Shown here: positions 965 to 7,603 of the stretch, one piece after another
Numbering within the stretch: position 1 is the first letter of the stretch
Layout: the number at the start of each line of letters is the position of its first letter
Assembly (NCBI GenBank): GCA_033182465.1
Contig: CP137322.1
Coordinates: 930,001 to 994,000, forward strand
From: Sanghuangporus weigelae
Taxonomy: Eukaryota > Basidiomycota > Agaricomycetes > Hymenochaetales > Hymenochaetaceae
Direction: 5' to 3'
Length of the DNA: 64,000 nt
The notes under the pieces: generated by a model
Database searches by the model: none
The model's input: only the letters and a program-made list of their open reading frames with translations
What the model was told of the DNA's origin: nothing
Position numbers and translations under genes: made by a program

Positions 965-2145
965 TCAAAGCTCTTCCAGAACCTGTCGAGCTCTGTACCT
1001 CCTTTCCATCAGCTCAATGTGGTTCTGCACTTTCTCGAGCGACCGAGTATATTTTTCCCTTGCCTCCATAAGCTCAGTCTTGAGACGGTCCAGTTCCGAT
1101 GTGAACGAGAAGTTTGATTGCGAATGCAATTTTCCGCTCATGTCGACATTGTTATGCGCACGCGTGCCTTCCAGTCTCTTCTGAAGAGAAAGAGTCCGTC
1201 TCAAGAGAGGTGACTGAGCCGCTCGAGTTGCTGAACTTCTTAGATTTGGAGGACTGAAAACTGAAGCACGAGGTGTACGGCAGCTATTTGACCTGATGCT
1301 AGTCCTAAGGACAGTCGGGCTTTTTGCTAGAGGAGATGGCAGCCCCGCGAGAGTAGATACGCTTGATTCGTCTGCTGATGTTGAATTGAGACTAAGAGAT
1401 TGCGACGCAGCTACATCTTGAAAATTGAGTCGTCGCAAAGGACCAGATCGATGAAGTCCCGAGCTAAGACCATCAGAAGAAAGGCGCAGTTTCCCTGTGG
1501 GAAGAGGTCGATTGGTTGGAACTGACATCGGACGTGCGGAAATGGTCAGCCGCCGATTCTCCTTTCCTAAGGGAGTCCTCAAAGAGCAAGAAAACAGAGT
1601 TGGAGAAAAGGGAGAAGCTACTGATGAGTTGCAAAGCTTTTTGCATTGTTCTTGAAGAATAGTCGAGTCTGCTAGAGTTTCCACGAGAACTGATCGTCCG
1701 CCAAGCTTCGCCGTTCTGGCACGCTTCTTCAAATCGTAAATGCTGGACAGCCTCTCGAATCGTACGAACAGGATGCTGTCACCAATATCAAAAGAGTGCT
1801 TGAAGCCAAGGATGCTTTCTCTAGAGGGAGACTATGAGTCCCATGGTCCTGCGCACAACCCATCAACCTACATCGTGCCACTCTCCTCACAGTATCGAAT
1901 GAGGGATTGCTCGTCTCCGACAGCAAGTACTCGAACTGTGTTGTTGAATTCGATATCCATTCCTAGACCGTTTGCATAGGACAAACCAAGAAAAAGCGGT
2001 AGAAACTCGAGATTTTGTGACGGAGGGAAGATTGCTCGTATCGTATCAATGAATTTAATGGCTGACGATAATTAGGTCTAGGTCTAGGTCAGTACAGACT
2101 CCGATTGGATTTCGGATGAATCCGATGGCGTCGATCATCAAACAT
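965..2145 (-). CDS. Uncharacterised protein, 363 aa, with C-terminal coiled coil
   Basis: Three exons (2145-2100, 2061-1872, 1820-965) join in phase into 364 codons including the stop. The introns are 38 and 51 bases, GT-AG. The N-terminal ~110 residues look like an ordered domain (for example FIDTIRAIFPPSQNLEFLPL, then MDIEFNNTVRVLAVGDEQSL). The middle, about residues 140-290, is Ser/Arg/Pro-rich and probably disordered. The last ~50 residues have the heptad-like spacing of a coiled coil (ELDRLKTELMEAREKYTRSL). An ordered head, phosphorylatable linker and coiled coil would suit a cytoskeletal, kinetochore or scaffold protein, but that is inference from composition and I cannot name the family. 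The 38-base first intron is short, so the first 15 residues are the least certain part. Confidence 0.7.
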
Positions 2146-2329
2146 CTCCTTCTCTAGATTCTAACTACATTTCCTGTGTAAAGACTTACAGCTAATTGTG
2201 GGGGTGGGCAATATGGTCTTCGCGTGCGCGTCGGAGGCCGAAAATAAGCCCAAATAGGCAAGTATCACAAAGCTTTGGCAAAATCATGCACAAAGTGCAC
2301 AACAGATCAATTCACCTACTTATGTTTTC

Positions 2330-2670
2330 GAAAATGTAGCCCCTGAGAGTTGAAGTATAGTACTTCAGTGTATCCTATGGAAACTTTTGTGTCGATGTAT
2401 GAGCTTTAGCTGGCTGAAATTCAAAAACAAAAATCCATTGTTTCATCACAAGATTCACAACAAATTAGCTTAATTATTGGCAACAGTGCAGTTTTTGCAA
2501 AAAGTACCTCCTGAGAGTTGAAGCACCTTATTCAAACATATATTCTACCATTTTATTAGACCGATACATGAACTGTGGTAGAGGGAAATTCAAGTCAAAG
2601 AATCATTGTAAACTCTTTTTGTTACAAAAATTGTGGTTATCTAATACGGCGTGGGCTAAATTTTACACAC
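2330..2670. repeat. Two imperfect tandem copies of a ~167-base unit
   Basis: The phrase CTGAGAGTTGAAG occurs near 2344 and again near 2511. The sequence after each copy can be aligned loosely (GATGTATGAGCTTTAGCTGG against GATACATGAACTGTGGTAGA), followed in both by AAATTCAA. The unit is therefore a diverged direct duplication with a period of about 167 bases. It lies just upstream of the open frame at 2680 and may belong to the same element. Confidence 0.5.
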
Positions 2671-2679
2671 CGAGTTGCG

Positions 2680-3555
2680 ATGCCAAATCAAGACTATTTC
2701 GAAAGGCTACTACGGCAGAACAGTGGTGGCGACTCAAGAGTAGCAAACCACGGATCGTCTGGAGAAGACACGGAGGACTCTAATGATTTGCAATTAGGAC
2801 TAACTAATATGCACATTGGACATACTCCACCGCCGGAACGCAGTCTGGCGGCGATGGAAGAAAGAAATGTCGCAAGGTATACGGAACTCCTGCAACGAAG
2901 ACATTATCGGCGTGGTGCAACTAGAAGATTTGTACATGAGAGCTTGGTGTGCGCCAATTGTTACTTGGCCTACCAACGAAGCTGGGTACTTGCGGAATGG
3001 CTCATGAAGAACTTCACGGAACGGTTAGTGTCAAGGGAAGCAGCCGATGTCAAGATTCGGCATAAGCCCGGACCCTCGGAACGAACAGAAGACCAACCAT
3101 TACCGAACCACGGAATGAGTGCATACGACCATGAGGTATCCATATGGCTTAGCGATAGGGATGTCTATGCATTAAAGGTCGGCGTGCGAGCTTGGATCAA
3201 TCAGCATCGGCACCAGACCTTGTGCAGTCACACGGCAGTGGAAGTAGATTGGCCAGTTTACAAGCGGCCACCTTCGGACATTGAACATCTTACGGAAGAA
3301 GCGATAGAACGCTTGATGCAGGCTTGGCGAGCGTCAGAGCCAGGGGTAATTACAGTTGATGAGTGGAATGGCCGCGAGCACTTTGGACAGAGGCTACGGC
3401 TAACCACGGGCCCAGGACTACAACTATCGGACATCGAAGTCGCGGCGAGGCACAGAAGGAGTGTAGCGGAGTACACTCATGCGCCGGGAGAAGATCGGCA
3501 AGCTCTGCCGATCTCTAACCCTGATATCACTATCTCCCCCATGATCGAGGATTAA
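2680..3555 (+). CDS. Unrecognised single-exon ORF, possible mobile-element protein
   Basis: An intron-free open frame of 291 codons starts at the first ATG, reading MPNQDYFERLLRQ; the frame stays open upstream to 2575. The protein is hydrophilic and rich in Arg, Glu and His, with one Cys pair (VCANC) near residue 90. It has helical stretches around LTEEAIERLMQAWRASEPG and no membrane segment. A long ORF without introns is out of character for this spliced genome. Together with an LTR-like sequence about 250 bases downstream it suggests a retroelement product such as a gag-like protein, but no diagnostic motif is visible. A lineage-specific host gene is the alternative. Confidence 0.35.
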   Translation: MPNQDYFERLLRQNSGGDSRVANHGSSGEDTEDSNDLQLGLTNMHIGHTPPPERSLAAMEERNVARYTELLQRRHYRRGATRRFVHESLVCANCYLAYQRSWVLAEWLMKNFTERLVSREAADVKIRHKPGPSERTEDQPLPNHGMSAYDHEVSIWLSDRDVYALKVGVRAWINQHRHQTLCSHTAVEVDWPVYKRPPSDIEHLTEEAIERLMQAWRASEPGVITVDEWNGREHFGQRLRLTTGPGLQLSDIEVAARHRRSVAEYTHAPGEDRQALPISNPDITISPMIED

Positions 3556-3798
3556 GCGGCAGAAGCTCGGCCCGGGAACGGAGCGCCAGAGAAGCGATAG
3601 CTTGGCAACTATCATGGGAACCCGTCTGGGAACGGAGAAGGATCGCGGGGTAAAGATAAGGAGAGATTAACATGTGATAACGATTGCAGATCGGAGGAAG
3701 CACGGAAGAAGCTTCTCGAAGCATCGGGGTAGTAGGACTCAAACAAACCCTCCTAATATGGTAGAAGTATTGTGATTCAACACTAGAGGAAAGTATCG

Positions 3799-4046
3799 GT
3801 GTTGGCACCAGAGTAGAGTACTGGTGTCAGAGAAAACATATTTTCTAGACCAATAGCAAGGCTGTAGTCGGTAGTAATAGGTAGTCGGTACTATTTAGTA
3901 AATAGGTTATTTAAGGGCCAGCTGAGCGGGGCATTGTCCCTCAGCAAAATTATTTTGTACTCTCAATCGAAAACTGTACCCTTTGATTGAAACCCTGTTC
4001 TACTACTGAGGTCAAGCTTGAGCCTATCGCTCGCTTCTAAAGTAGT
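3799..4046. mobile_element. Possible LTR remnant
   Basis: This stretch of about 248 bases begins TGTTGGCACC and ends GTAGTACA. It contains a TATTTAAGG promoter-like block followed by a GC-rich block, the general layout of a short fungal LTR. A purine-rich tract (AGAGGAAAG) lies just before it, where a polypurine tract would be expected. No second LTR and no clear target duplication were found, so it would be a solo or one-ended remnant. The family is undetermined and the whole element looks incomplete. Confidence 0.3.
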
Positions 4047-4206
4047 ACATCTATAAACCTTCGTTCCGTCTCCAATCAATTATCATCAGAAGGAATAAGC
4101 AGGGACTTGTTCCGGTACGCTTAGACTGACCACCTCGTCTAAAAACACTGGTCCTAACACTTTTTGAACTCCGACGATCATACCTATAACCGAACGCACG
4201 CAAATA

Positions 4207-4282
4207 CACAGCGGGCAAACAGTTATTTAGACACGGACTAAATCCATTACTAGATGACAAATGAAATTTGAAATATAATAAT
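4207..4282 (+). repeat. Left terminal inverted repeat of the transposon
   Basis: These 76 bases match the reverse complement of 6955-7030 with one difference (G against A at the seventh base). Homology with the right end resumes after the palindrome insertion at about 4528, with CACTGCGTTACAG against CACTGTGTTACGG. Confidence 0.85.
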
Positions 4283-4527
4283 GCATTTAGTCATGTAGTA
4301 TATTTTATGTTTGTTCTTTGACTAGATGTTAAACTATATTTGAAATAACAAAAGGGATTTTGATTCGGATTTGGTAAACAAAGAAATAACTATACTTTCT
4401 AGTTTTAGTAATTATAGCTATTTCTTTGTTTACCAAATCCGAATCTAAATCCCTTTTGTTATTTCAAATATAGTTTAACATCTAGTCAAAGAACAAACAT
4501 AAAATATACTACATGACTAAATGCATT
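4280..4527. mobile_element. 248-base near-perfect palindrome (fold-back MITE) nested in the left TIR
   Basis: The arms 4280-4388 and 4419-4527 are reverse complements over 109 bases with about one mismatch, around a ~30-base loop. The ends read AATGCATTTAG and CTAAATGCATT. Comparison with the uninterrupted right TIR shows that this block is an insertion: ATAAT is followed directly by CACTG there, but by the palindrome here. It has no coding capacity. A single strand would fold into a long hairpin. The target duplication cannot be read uniquely because the ends are themselves palindromic with the flanks. Confidence 0.75.
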
Positions 4528-4940
4528 CACTGCGTTACAGAGGTTCCTAACACACATCCGTGTAGTCTATCATATATGAGCTAATACAAATCTACAAAAA
4601 ATGTTGTTTTAGTCTATGAAAGTTTCATTTGTAGTTGTCTGTTTATGACCTAGAAATTTATGTATTGGTGACTTAGTGCACATCAAGTTGTAGATATGCC
4701 TAGATGACCAACGGAAATGACGAAATATTGCTAGCTCATATAGACAACTCTACACAGATCTACGCGAGTCTCAGGGACTTTACCGAAAACTCGACGCGTC
4801 ACTTCTCTCTTCCTGCCTGCCACCATCATCACCTCTCTTCTCTTCTGCTGCACGGTCGTCATGCATCCGACATCGCGCCCACCACTCGTCTCTGGTAAGC
4901 AATCATGTCCAGACTGGATGATTCTTACGGTTTTATCTAG

Positions 4941-5166
4941 AATGTCAACGTACTCAGACCCTGTCACCATCCTCAGCTACCTCAGTGCCCTCCTTTCTCG
5001 AATCAGCACCGAAGAATCACCCAAAGCTCATGTAGTCCTCCTCTCATCCTTGGCACATGCAAAATTCCTCTACGGTGATTTGGATTGAACGCGCACGGAT
5101 ATGGATACAGCATGGAAGATTTTGGACGATCTCGATGGTGTTGACCCGGCAGTAAATGCGGCTTAA
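4941..5166 (+). pseudogene. Captured fragment of proteasome lid subunit Rpn9/PSMD13
   Basis: The frame reads SDPVTILSYLSALLSRISTE, then AHVVLLSSLAHAKFLYGDLD and MDTAWKILDDLDGVDPAVNA. This matches the conserved region of Rpn9 (family pattern ...LLASIAHAKLLYGDLDGTKADIDAAWKVLDELDGV...). An in-frame TGA now stands where the family has a residue after YGDLD, and the match stops abruptly near 5166. Only about 70 residues of a ~380-residue protein are present. It sits inside the TIR element, and an upstream ATG (4861) with a GTAAGC donor may be part of another captured first exon. It is non-functional as a proteasome subunit. The intact gene should be elsewhere in the genome. Confidence 0.75.
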
Positions 5167-5169
5167 TGG

Positions 5170-6455
5170 CCGCATCAATTTGGGTGAGTTTCCGGTTCCC
5201 TCGGCAGCGCAAATTTCACCGAACGTATTTGCGGATAACTTGTTCAACTTTAGCCCAAATATTTCAATGATGAACCGCATGCAGAAAAGCAGCAAGACGT
5301 TCACCGAGGTTAACGCTGAATATGTCAGGATGCAAGGTGAACTGGCTAAGAAACAGCGCGACATGGAAAATCTTGATCGTACGCTTGGTAGAGTTCTTGC
5401 TGAGGAGTACAAGGCGCGAATGGAGAACGAGCAGAACGAGGCTATTCGTGAGGCGCACGAGGCAATCATGACACTGCACGCTCAACTTGAGAGTACCCAA
5501 GCCAGCCACCAGGCGACGATTCAGGCTTACATCAAAGAGAGGGACACGCTGAAGACTATGATTTCTCGTTATGAACGGGGCGGGGCACTTCCAGCTGCTA
5601 CTTCTACTCAACAAGCGTGACCATCGTCTCCACAGGTGAATGGATCTGTTCGCGAGCCAACTGAATTAGAGAATGAGCTTGAGGAAGTCCGAACTAACTT
5701 CGAGGCATACCGAAAAGAAATGGGCGTTGATACTATCAAGCTTCGCGAAGAAGTTCTCCAATACCAGCGTGAATCCAGCCAATTGAGAGCGGCACTCGCA
5801 AAGGCCAATGCGAGGTTTGAAGTCCTCAATGGTGAGTTTATTCTCTTTGCTCAACGGGTCAAGCTCACCATCTGGGTCAGAGCGGCACCGCATGGTTCAG
5901 AAACAGCACATCATGCACAAGCGAGAAGCTCAAAATCTGCAGAAACGGAATCAACGATTGCACGATCAATCAACCATGCTGCCGAGGAATTGGCCTCCGC
6001 TAATACCCAATCCGAACGATTGCGGAACGAATGCTCCAATCTTCGTGAAGACCTGGGAGGTGCGCCGCCGTTAATTACTCGTCTTGTGATTCATATTAAC
6101 TCGAGATGTAGAGTGTGCAGACTCAATTAATTAATGAAAACAAAAGTCTGTCTCTGGAGCGGTCTCGTATGGCGGACTTGATTTCCAACGTGCAGAAAAT
6201 GCACAATGACATTGACAGGGCGAACGGCAGCGATGGGCGAAGATTTGAGTCCCGAATCCATAATCTGGAGGGCCAAGCGTAAGTGTTCCTCTATATCACG
6301 TTTGCTTTAGCGCAGTAACATCCAATTTTTGATGCTTTAGTCAGGATCTTTGAACTCAGCTATCCCGCGAGCGCGACACAGTCCGACAAGTTTCATTGCC
6401 AAAAGATATTGAAGTTCAGGAACTGCGAACCAAGGTTGATCGCTCCGTAAGTGTA
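5170..6455 (+). pseudogene. Captured fragment of nuclear-pore coiled-coil protein TPR/Mlp1
   Basis: Several coding blocks separated by short introns read as TPR/Mlp1 coiled coil: TFTEVNAEYVRMQGELAKKQ, ELENELEEVRTNFEAYRKEM, LREEVLQYQRESSQLRAAL, NTQSERLRNECSNLREDL, MADLISNVQKMHNDIDRANG, then KDIEVQELRTKVDRS. Residue patterns and block order follow the fungal family. Introns are still present (for example donor GTAAGTG after VDRS near 6449), so the copy was taken from DNA, not mRNA. Stops and frame breaks lie between blocks, and the piece lacks both ends of the very long parent protein. It follows the Rpn9 fragment in the same orientation, giving a chimeric captured unit that may be transcribed from a captured leader near 4780-4860. 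Confidence 0.75.
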
Positions 6456-6954
6456 TGCGATGTAGCCAGGGATTTGGATGGATGTTGTTTTCTCGACGAG
6501 ATGGATCAAACAGCGCATATCACCTCGACTCAACCTTCTGTATCAGACCATGAACGGATCAGTGCATTGGCAGATAGGTACTGGGCTAGCCAAGATAGTT
6601 GTCGTATTCGAAATTCAATATAATTTCTATATTAAGCAATTTATATTCTTGATATAGCAATATCGAATTATTTGGGTGGATCAGAGAATTTCAAACTTAG
6701 TTCTTAGGTACATATATACCGACATTGTAGTCCATCCAACACAAATATACAAACTTGTTTGTATAGCGTCTACACTAATATACATTTTGGCACTGTCTAG
6801 CTCATCTACACCAAGTGTGCTAGCGCCCCGTAGTCAGACTCCTGTTTGCTACATAAACTGTGTGTTAGATGATCTACATTCTGAGTGTAGTCACGCGATT
6901 TGTGATCTAGCACACATCTACACACACATGTATTATTTCTTCCGTAACACAGTG

Positions 6955-7030
6955 ATTATTATATTTCAAATTTCATTTGTCATCTAGTAATGGATTTAGT
7001 CCGTGTCTAAATAACTGTTTGCCTGCTGTG
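6955..7030 (-). repeat. Right terminal inverted repeat of the transposon
   Basis: Reverse complement of the left repeat. It is uninterrupted, so it shows what the left end looked like before the palindrome inserted. The ATA target copy follows directly. Confidence 0.85.
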
Positions 7031-7603
7031 ATACGGCGTTGCCGACCCCCACTAATTGCGTTAGTATTAGTAATGACACTCCCCAGTGAAGTAGAGACAA
7101 ATTATAACACGTGATGAGCAGACTTAGTGAAAAATTTGGTTGGATTTGAGAGTCAACAGCATCACAAAATCATCAGTTACGACTCTTCTTCACTGCAACT
7201 TGGCTTACATATGTTACTCATAGAAAGAGAAAAGCACAAATTTTCTCAATTGCGAAATCTGATGTAGATCCCCTTGGGGTGACTTCCTGCTCACTACTAC
7301 CTCAACATCAGAAGACATTCAATTATATTCTGCAAATCAAATCTTTTCTTTAAAATTTCGACAGGCAGTAGACGGTCAATAATTTATTTAGAAACTTGTT
7401 CTGAGCAATTTGGTTGAGAATTAAGCTCGGGACAAAATGGGTAGTACCAGAGGGAAGGTGGAAGGCATACCAGACGGCGAAGTCCATTTTCCCATCTGCT
7501 TTTGAAACAAGTTTTCTTCACCTTCATAGTCCAGAGTGCCATTACTAACGCAAACAGCTGTAATCTTCATGCTGAAAGACAAACTTTGTATCGCAAGATC
7601 GCT
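7031..7603. other. Upstream region of the MBIP-like gene
   Basis: Runs from the transposon end to the ATG at 7604. It is AT-rich, without coding exons that I can support. Promoter and leader of the downstream gene should lie here, so the transposon sits about 570 bases from that start. Confidence 0.4.

What the first reader, a model, noticed from the sequence alone, without database searches (positions are those of the whole stretch)
4207..7030. A DNA transposon that has captured pieces of a proteasome gene and a nuclear-pore gene
Seen: two 76-base inverted ends differing at one base, an ATA repeat on both flanks, no transposase, and inside them recognisable Rpn9/PSMD13 and TPR/Mlp1 coding blocks in the same orientation with introns still present. 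Known: Pack-MULE and Pack-CACTA elements of plants pick up host gene pieces this way, while well-described fungal cases are few. Inference: this is a fungal Pack-type element, recent because its ends are nearly identical, and its chimeric insert could be transcribed and yield antisense, small RNA or a new protein.
Basis: partly seen in the sequence, partly recalled or inferred. Interest (0 to 1): 0.85.

Follow-up and report, generated by a model that had tools for sequence, protein, structure and literature searches.

The report
Gene-carrying transposon nested inside another transposon
A small jumping DNA element in a fungus carries stitched-together, broken pieces of two housekeeping genes, has spread recently to several chromosomes, and here landed inside a second jumping element whose ends were mistaken for its own.

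Summary
The 76-base inverted ends (4207-4282 / 6955-7030) belong to a 394-bp palindromic MITE (CACAGC ends, target duplication ATA). Its joined halves match an intact MITE elsewhere at 391/394. Nested inside is the gene-carrying element, 4528-6954 (2,427 bp), with its own short ends (CACTGCGTTACAG.../...CCGTAACACAGTG) and its own duplication, ATT. It and five other copies are pairwise 99.4-99.8% identical. Of nine copies with both ends read, eight have perfect 3-bp duplications, all ANT. The cargo is genuine: donors were found on C10 (Rpn9/PSMD13) and C9 (TPR/Mlp1). A TPR block with three retained introns lies between two Rpn9 pieces. CAC..GTG ends, 3-bp duplications and subterminal TGTAG repeats resemble CACTA/EnSpm, so it works like a plant Pack-CACTA; the mobilising transposase was not identified. 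In-frame stops shared by the three young copies checked, and near-even codon-position divergence, argue against a selected protein. TPR pieces also ride in a second, CACAGC-ended family (4.3-4.9 kb). Fungal transduplication by DNA transposons is known (PMC3538342, PMC6710886); five searches with mostly capped listings showed no fungal Pack-CACTA.

The parts
4204..4206 (.). target-site duplication ATA of the outer MITE, left copy
4207..4527 (+). left part (321 bp) of the outer 394-bp palindromic MITE, CACAGC end; arm 4207-4401, loop 4402-4405, start of second arm 4406-4527
   Evidence: foldback; joined MITE 391/394 to L007; arms 190 of 195 matching; many genomic copies
4525..4527 (.). target-site duplication ATT of the inner gene-carrying element, left copy
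4528..6954 (+). inner gene-carrying (Pack-type, CACTA-like) element, 2,427 bp
   Evidence: boundaries shared by other copies, 8 of 9 two-ended copies with a perfect 3-bp duplication; five other copies 99.4-99.6% identical to this one
4528..4540 (+). 5' terminal repeat CACTGCGTTACAG
4528..4787 (+). 5' subterminal region (first 200 bp 34% GC), 5 TGTAG/CTACA motifs in 260 bp
4953..5165 (+). Rpn9/PSMD13 piece 1, 90% to host gene (L062rc 2647-2859)
5170..5404 (+). TPR/Mlp1 piece 1 (host L054rc 1325-1559), 89%
5403..6452 (+). TPR/Mlp1 piece 2 (host L054rc 2031-3115), 89.5%; about 470 bp of the host gene is missing between the two pieces
5832..5880 (+). retained TPR intron, first of three (GT...AG)
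   Evidence: for splice sites; coordinates read by eye
6060..6111 (+). retained TPR intron, second of three (GT...AG)
   Evidence: coordinates read by eye
6279..6340 (+). retained TPR intron, third of three (GT...AG)
   Evidence: coordinates read by eye
6492..6579 (+). Rpn9 piece 2, 81% (L062rc 3557-3644); by eye it may begin near 6455
6628..6954 (+). 3' subterminal region (33-41% GC in 200-bp steps), 7 TGTAG/CTACA motifs in 327 bp
6942..6954 (-). 3' terminal repeat, read inward CACTGTGTTACGG
6955..6957 (.). target-site duplication ATT of the inner element, right copy
6958..7030 (+). right part (73 bp) of the outer MITE
7031..7033 (.). target-site duplication ATA of the outer MITE, right copy

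Best explanation
Two insertions are nested. First a 394-bp palindromic, CACAGC-ended MITE inserted at ATA. Later a 2,427-bp non-autonomous CACTA/EnSpm-like element (CACYG...CAGTG ends, 3-bp ANT target duplication) inserted into that MITE at ATT. The inner element is a Pack-type element: it carries an Rpn9 - TPR - Rpn9 chimera copied at DNA level, introns included, from two host genes. It moves in trans by cut-and-paste, and its last burst is recent. Shown: ends, duplications, nesting, copies, donors, retained introns. Inferred: a CACTA-type transposase binds the short ends and TGTAG subterminal repeats; the cargo entered as filler by template switching or gap repair, first Rpn9 and then TPR replacing the middle of Rpn9; copy number rose by transposition with gap repair. 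The cargo is most likely passenger DNA without protein function.
For: Nesting: without the inner element and one ATT, the MITE matches intact L007 at 391/394, and L024 and L002 at 376 and 372 of 394. Copies: 8 of 9 copies with both ends read have identical 3-bp flanks, all ANT. Six young copies are pairwise 99.4-99.8% identical; L050/L051 form a second pair (99.6%), 92% to the first set. Donors: TPR gene (profiles) and Rpn9 (PSD13_N E=3.9e-76; solved PSMD13/RPN9 chains, best E=6e-78). Cargo order Rpn9-TPR-Rpn9. DNA-level copy: three GT/AG introns retained in the window copy. CACTA-like: CAC..GTG ends plus 3-bp duplications match fungal EnSpm in passages of PMC12730594. TGTAG motifs: 12 in the 587 terminal bases, 3 in the 1,840 central bases. 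Three Transposase_21 matches without stops exist in the genome. Passenger cargo: window versus L051 differ at codon positions 1/2/3 by 21/286, 23/285, 22/289, and window versus L053 by 20/279, 22/280, 21/282; two in-frame stops are shared by the three young copies checked (window, L047, L049).
Against: No transposase gene with matching ends was found: the 13- and 11-base end patterns (full lists) do not occur near the three Transposase_21 or the Plavaka matches. The looser search was at chance level and listed only its first places. So the partner and the superfamily call rest on ends and duplication length. Duplication length is not uniform for CACTA in print: passages of PMC8903248 give 5 nt for its rice and maize CACTA sets, against 3 bp for EnSpm in PMC12730594. 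The terminal repeat is short (11 of 13 bases). L053 lacks a duplication and has a changed 3' end; no ends were recognised in L052. Two codon-position comparisons are less even: window versus L052 24/282, 12/282, 23/283; L051 versus L053 14/285, 12/286, 7/288. Search tools score only the best candidates, so copy numbers are lower bounds.
Confidence: 0.87

Rival explanations
1. One reading: one Pack-type element 4207-7030 bounded by 76-bp CACAGC ends and ATA.
For: Ends and ATA are real. Elements of this type exist elsewhere: L058 (4,336 bp, 397-bp arms 96.5% alike, AAT) and L059 (4,864 bp, 388-bp arms 95.6% alike, TTC) carry TPR pieces. L045 has one CACAGC end 10 bp outside the inner element.
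Against: In the window the inner element has its own ends and ATT duplication; joined MITE halves equal an intact MITE but for 3 bases; none of the five other near-identical copies is bounded by CACAGC ends.
Confidence: 0.02
2. The chimera Rpn9-TPR-Rpn9 was formed first as an ordinary genomic rearrangement (a pseudogene), and the element then enclosed it whole, for example by pairing ends of two neighbouring elements as proposed for Arabidopsis Pack-CACTA.
For: Group 1 (CACYG-ended) and group 2 (CACAGC-ended) TPR copies share 10 derived sites absent from the gene, L055 and L056, spread over codon positions 1/2/3 and introns as 3/2/3/2, as if a non-coding TPR copy existed before both. L068 shows two ends of this family near an Hsp70 fragment. 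The neighbouring-ends model is described in passages of PMC8616336.
Against: No free-standing Rpn9-TPR-Rpn9 chimera outside an element was seen among the fetched loci, which do not cover the genome; ten sites are few.
Confidence: 0.3
3. The element is moved by a non-CACTA transposase (for example Plavaka or a PIF/Harbinger-like enzyme, which also make 2-3-bp duplications).
For: Plavaka transposase matches exist in the genome (8 matches, 6 over cut-off); 3-bp duplications alone are not exclusive to CACTA, and PMC8903248 passages give 5 nt for plant CACTA.
Against: Passages of PMC12730594 give Plavaka termini as TGT..ACA or CATCA..TGATG and fungal EnSpm as CAC..GTG with 3 bp; our ends are CACTG/CACCG..CAGTG. 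Passages of PMC8903248 report mostly TTA or TAA for rice and maize PIF elements; here ANT.
Confidence: 0.12
4. The cargo is functional: the chimera is transcribed and silences or mimics Rpn9/TPR.
For: Same-orientation exons with splice signals kept in the window copy; TPR pieces recur in several elements.
Against: Shared stops and a near-neutral codon-position pattern speak against a conserved protein in the element lineage; no RNA data were available.
Confidence: 0.1

Closest known systems
Pack-CACTA elements of plants (Arabidopsis; Catoni et al. 2019 seen only as a reference entry and through passages of PMC8903248 and PMC8616336)
   Same: Non-autonomous, CAC..GTG ends, gene fragments from more than one locus, several copies, no transposase.
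   Different: Fungal host; ends CACYGYGTTAC, not CACTACAA; mobilising CACTA element not identified; one donor fragment nested in the other; 3-bp duplications (5 nt reported for CACTA of rice and maize in PMC8903248 passages).
Fungal transduplication by hAT (histone H3 in Pyrenophora tritici-repentis, PMC3538342; Pseudocercospora fijiensis, PMC6710886; passages seen)
   Same: Housekeeping gene sequence captured and amplified by a DNA transposon in a fungus.
   Different: hAT with 8-bp duplications; a transcript or retrocopy without introns was captured in P. fijiensis; some elements keep a transposase. Here intron-bearing fragments of two genes and 3-bp duplications.
Pack-TIRs of animals (PMC8277862, passages seen)
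   Same: Host pieces between inverted ends; multicopy cases explained by template switching followed by transposition.
   Different: Mostly hAT and Tc1/mariner, mostly single copy.
Fungal EnSpm (CACTA) transposons with TET/JBP genes (PMC12730594, passages seen)
   Same: CAC..GTG termini and 3-bp duplications.
   Different: Those encode a transposase and an enzyme gene; described there from Puccinia and relatives.

Membership tests
CACTA/EnSpm superfamily (non-autonomous member) | termini 5'-CAC..GTG-3' | tested here: met
   CACTG/CACCG...CAGTG in 8 of 9 two-ended copies; the ninth (L053) has GACTG at its 3' end
CACTA/EnSpm superfamily (non-autonomous member) | 3-bp target-site duplication (as given for fungal EnSpm in PMC12730594; PMC8903248 gives 5 nt for rice and maize CACTA) | tested here: met
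   8 of 9 copies with both ends; passages
CACTA/EnSpm superfamily (non-autonomous member) | repeated short motifs in subterminal regions (recalled feature, from no call) | tested here: met
   TGTAG/CTACA 12 in 587 terminal bases, 3 in 1,840 central bases; motif chosen after looking at the ends
CACTA/EnSpm superfamily (non-autonomous member) | ends shared with an autonomous element encoding a tnp2/Transposase_21 transposase | tested here: inconclusive
   three Transposase_21 matches exist but no matching end pattern lies near them; their own ends could not be fetched
Pack-type element | transposon ends and duplication around host gene fragments, no transposase | tested here: met
Pack-type element | donor genes present elsewhere in the genome | tested here: met
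   TPR on C9 and Rpn9 on C10
Pack-type element | mobilised as a unit | tested here: met
   six copies, pairwise 99.4-99.8% identical, on C2, C3, C5, C8 and C12
   none of the five other near-identical copies; they end in CACCG...CAGTG. L045 has one CACAGC end 10 bp outside
Plavaka | termini TGT..ACA or CATCA..TGATG | tested here: not met
   ends read against passages

The most novel reading that the evidence does not exclude
In this fungus the TPR/Mlp1 nuclear-pore gene is a recurrent donor: pieces of it have been taken up by two different CACTA-like families (CACYG-ended with Rpn9; CACAGC-ended with ~390-bp arms) and sit next to an eIF3i piece in at least one further locus. TPR-derived cargo may be favoured because RNA from it interferes with the nuclear basket or with silencing of the elements.
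Probability: 0.07. Interest if true: 0.8.

Novelty: new member of a known kind. Interest (0 to 1): 0.5.

Why it matters
It gives a clean case of exon shuffling by a CACTA-like element in a fungus: two known donor genes, intermediates with and without the internal TPR deletion, an amplification at or under about 0.6% divergence and exact duplications. That makes it possible to ask how fungi capture genes with introns rather than transcripts, and whether a fungus silences a donor gene whose pieces are repeated. It also warns that long, nearly perfect inverted ends around a cargo can belong to a host MITE.

Tried and rejected
Plavaka as mover: rejected on ends. Autonomous partner by end pattern: the 13-base pattern gave 18 hits against 7 for the reversed control; 16 of the 18 lie in loci already known, and 2 (on C13) were not read. 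The 11-base pattern gave 33 against 46, and the 16-base pattern with two mismatches 226 against 266; of the 226 only the first places were listed.

Direct Pfam scan of six translated element pieces: no match reached a cut-off; similarity was established through donor genes instead. PF07926 search in the genome: 8 matches, 6 with stops inside, led to the donor and to other TPR loci. One of them (C1:1567882, 545-aa open frame) was not read.

Independent-capture test: the unrooted tree of TPR pieces (16 rows; L057, L060, L061 and L063 left out because they do not span the stretch) and 200 resamplings give stable groups but cannot be rooted without an outgroup. Codon positions of the 10 shared sites lean towards a common non-coding ancestor of groups 1 and 2, so three independent captures are not claimed. 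L068 with Hsp70: two family ends in an unresolved arrangement.

Literature searches for a fungal CACTA capture: 20 of 178 listed; 12 of 12; 15 of 38; 7 of 7; 12 of 168. Among the titles and abstract beginnings shown I saw fungal hAT-type and Helitron cases, none of a CACTA element in a fungus; PMC10853768 holds Pack-CACTA only in its reference list. Papers seen as passages only: PMC12730594, PMC3538342, PMC8903248, PMC8277862, PMC6710886, PMC10853768, PMC8616336, PMC4289320.
Full report
What is there. The inverted ends, the ATA flanks, the lack of a transposase and the Rpn9/TPR similarity are all confirmed. A repeat scan also shows a 122-nt foldback at 4280-4401/4406-4527.

Two elements, not one. 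Genome searches with three parts of the element separated it. The first 321 bp (4207-4527) and the last 76 bp match a scattered family whose hits cover both orientations, as a palindrome would. The middle and the inner flanks match a different set of loci, from about 4524 to about 6960. The middle begins CACTGCGTTACAG and ends CCGTAACACAGTG, flanked by ATT on both sides. Removing it with one ATT leaves 394 bp that match an intact MITE (L007) at 391 of 394, and two others at 376 and 372 of 394. The MITE is a near-perfect hairpin: 190 of 195 arm bases match around a 4-base loop. In the CACAGC family, 13 of 15 elements read at both ends have identical 3-bp flanks; L001 and L031 do not, and L044 and L045 showed one end only.

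The inner element. Ten loci, the window included, cover at least 1,793 of 1,841 query bases. Six are 99.4-99.8% alike pairwise (5 to 15 differences in about 2,420). L050 and L051 are 99.6% alike and 92% to the first six; L052 and L053 are more diverged (82-89% to the rest). Nine have both ends read. Eight of these have identical 3-bp flanks (ATT, AGT, ACT or AAT); L053 does not. L052 showed no recognisable ends. The same search also found shorter and more diverged TPR or Rpn9 matches (27 matches in all).

Donors. The TPR/Mlp1 gene is on C9 (about 1534000-1541500, minus strand). An automatic splice model runs through it with GT/AG introns. One stretch of about 100 residues in that model looks read in a wrong frame, while another frame there is open and TPR-like, so the model is not exact. 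The first 1,295 residues match TPR_MLP1_2 (2.8e-27), TPR (1.7e-19) and Nucleoprot-TPR (1.5e-8). The Rpn9 gene is in L062 (C10:710000-716000): PSD13_N 3.9e-76 and PCI 7.6e-10, and solved PSMD13/RPN9 chains at E down to 6e-78. The ends of both gene models are uncertain. In the window, Rpn9 piece 1 (90%, 213 bp) is followed by TPR pieces (89%, 235 bp; 89.5%, 1,086 aligned bp) and then Rpn9 piece 2 (81%, 88 bp). The TPR pieces skip about 470 bp of the gene. L057 (element 5' end, Rpn9, then uninterrupted TPR to 1984) lacks that deletion and so looks older in structure. Three introns with GT/AG are kept in the window copy, so the copy was made from DNA; L052 and L053 have lost some splice sites. The origin of 4830-4945 was not found.

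Fate of the cargo. In the second TPR block, window and L051 differ at 21/286, 23/285 and 22/289 sites of codon positions 1, 2 and 3, and window and L053 at 20/279, 22/280 and 21/282, as expected without protein selection. Window versus L052 (24/282, 12/282, 23/283) and L051 versus L053 (14/285, 12/286, 7/288) are less even. Stops at two codons are shared by the three young copies examined (window, L047, L049); the older copies have other stops. So the chimera was probably not a protein-coding gene when it spread. RNA effects remain untested.

Kind of element and mechanism. CAC..GTG ends with 3-bp duplications fit fungal EnSpm as described in PMC12730594 (passages); PMC8903248 gives 5 nt for CACTA of rice and maize (passages). 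TGTAG motifs crowd the ends (12 in 587 bases against 3 in 1,840). The genome holds three Transposase_21 matches without stops; the one I read, L072, matches that family at E=4.6e-12. None has the element's 13- or 11-base end pattern nearby. The simplest account is cut-and-paste in trans by a CACTA-type transposase, with host pieces entering by template switching or gap repair. Junctions show at most about two shared bases by eye, which does not discriminate between models. PMC8277862 (passages) gives template switching as a cause in animals; PMC8616336 (passages) reports the neighbouring-ends model for Arabidopsis Pack-CACTA.

A wider pattern. TPR pieces also lie in L058 (4,336 bp; AAT flanks) and L059 (4,864 bp; TTC flanks), both bounded by CACAGC ends with arms of 397 and 388 bp, 96.5% and 95.6% alike, and in L055, L056, L060, L061, L063 and L064. 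L056 has an eIF3i piece before TPR (E=2.9e-10, below the family's cut-off). L068 has Hsp70 pieces (1.8e-24 and 1.5e-11) beside two ends of the CACYG family. A tree of 16 rows separates three groups; resampling supports the splits tested in 186 to 200 of 200, but without an outgroup it cannot say how many captures there were. Ten sites shared by groups 1 and 2 but not by the gene, L055 or L056 are spread 3/2/3 over codon positions with 2 in introns, which leans, on few sites, towards a common non-coding ancestor.

Place in the literature. Transduplication by DNA transposons in fungi is in print: histone H3 by hAT, and a case assigned to Tc1/mariner (PMC3538342; PMC6710886; passages). Pleurotus Helitrons are reported not to tend to capture host gene fragments (PMC4289320, passages). 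Five searches (three of the listings capped) showed no fungal Pack-CACTA; most subscription papers are not in that library.

Noticed in passing
window 4001-4159 (at least): A repeat upstream of the MITE recurs at 97-99% in L051, L058 and L061 and, by eye, in L068; it ends ...CTAACA and may be the end of an LTR. Only the part from 4001 was searched.
   Followed up: no
L058:1641-5976 and L059:1975-6838: CACAGC-ended elements of 4.3 and 4.9 kb with ~390-bp inverted arms and 3-bp duplications carry TPR pieces (host from about 2375 to 3133 and from about 3826 on): a second Pack-type family related to the outer MITE.
   Followed up: partly
L068:514-2012: Hsp70 fragments lie between a 3' end and a 5' end of the inner element's family, each preceded by AAT; the arrangement is unresolved.
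   Followed up: partly
L056:1822-2151 and following: An eIF3i C-terminal piece directly precedes TPR sequence; L055 shares a 99-bp stretch at 76% of that flank.
   Followed up: partly
L058:3571-4509 minus strand: A 313-aa open frame without Pfam match sits in a ~1.5-kb insertion that splits the TPR piece of L058.
   Followed up: no
L063: Near the start of contig C6, TPR pieces lie among repeated ~450- to 1,000-bp units in both orientations.
   Followed up: no
L045:1161-1249: Another copy of the inner element landed 10 bp from the end of a CACAGC element, so the two families are neighbours at least twice.
   Followed up: no
L050: This copy holds an extra insertion of about 670 bp absent from its near-identical sister L051.
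   Followed up: no
G000:C1:1567882-1568259: A weak TPR_MLP1_2 match (26.5 bits, below cut-off) in a 545-aa open frame without stops, distinct from the TPR donor.
   Followed up: no
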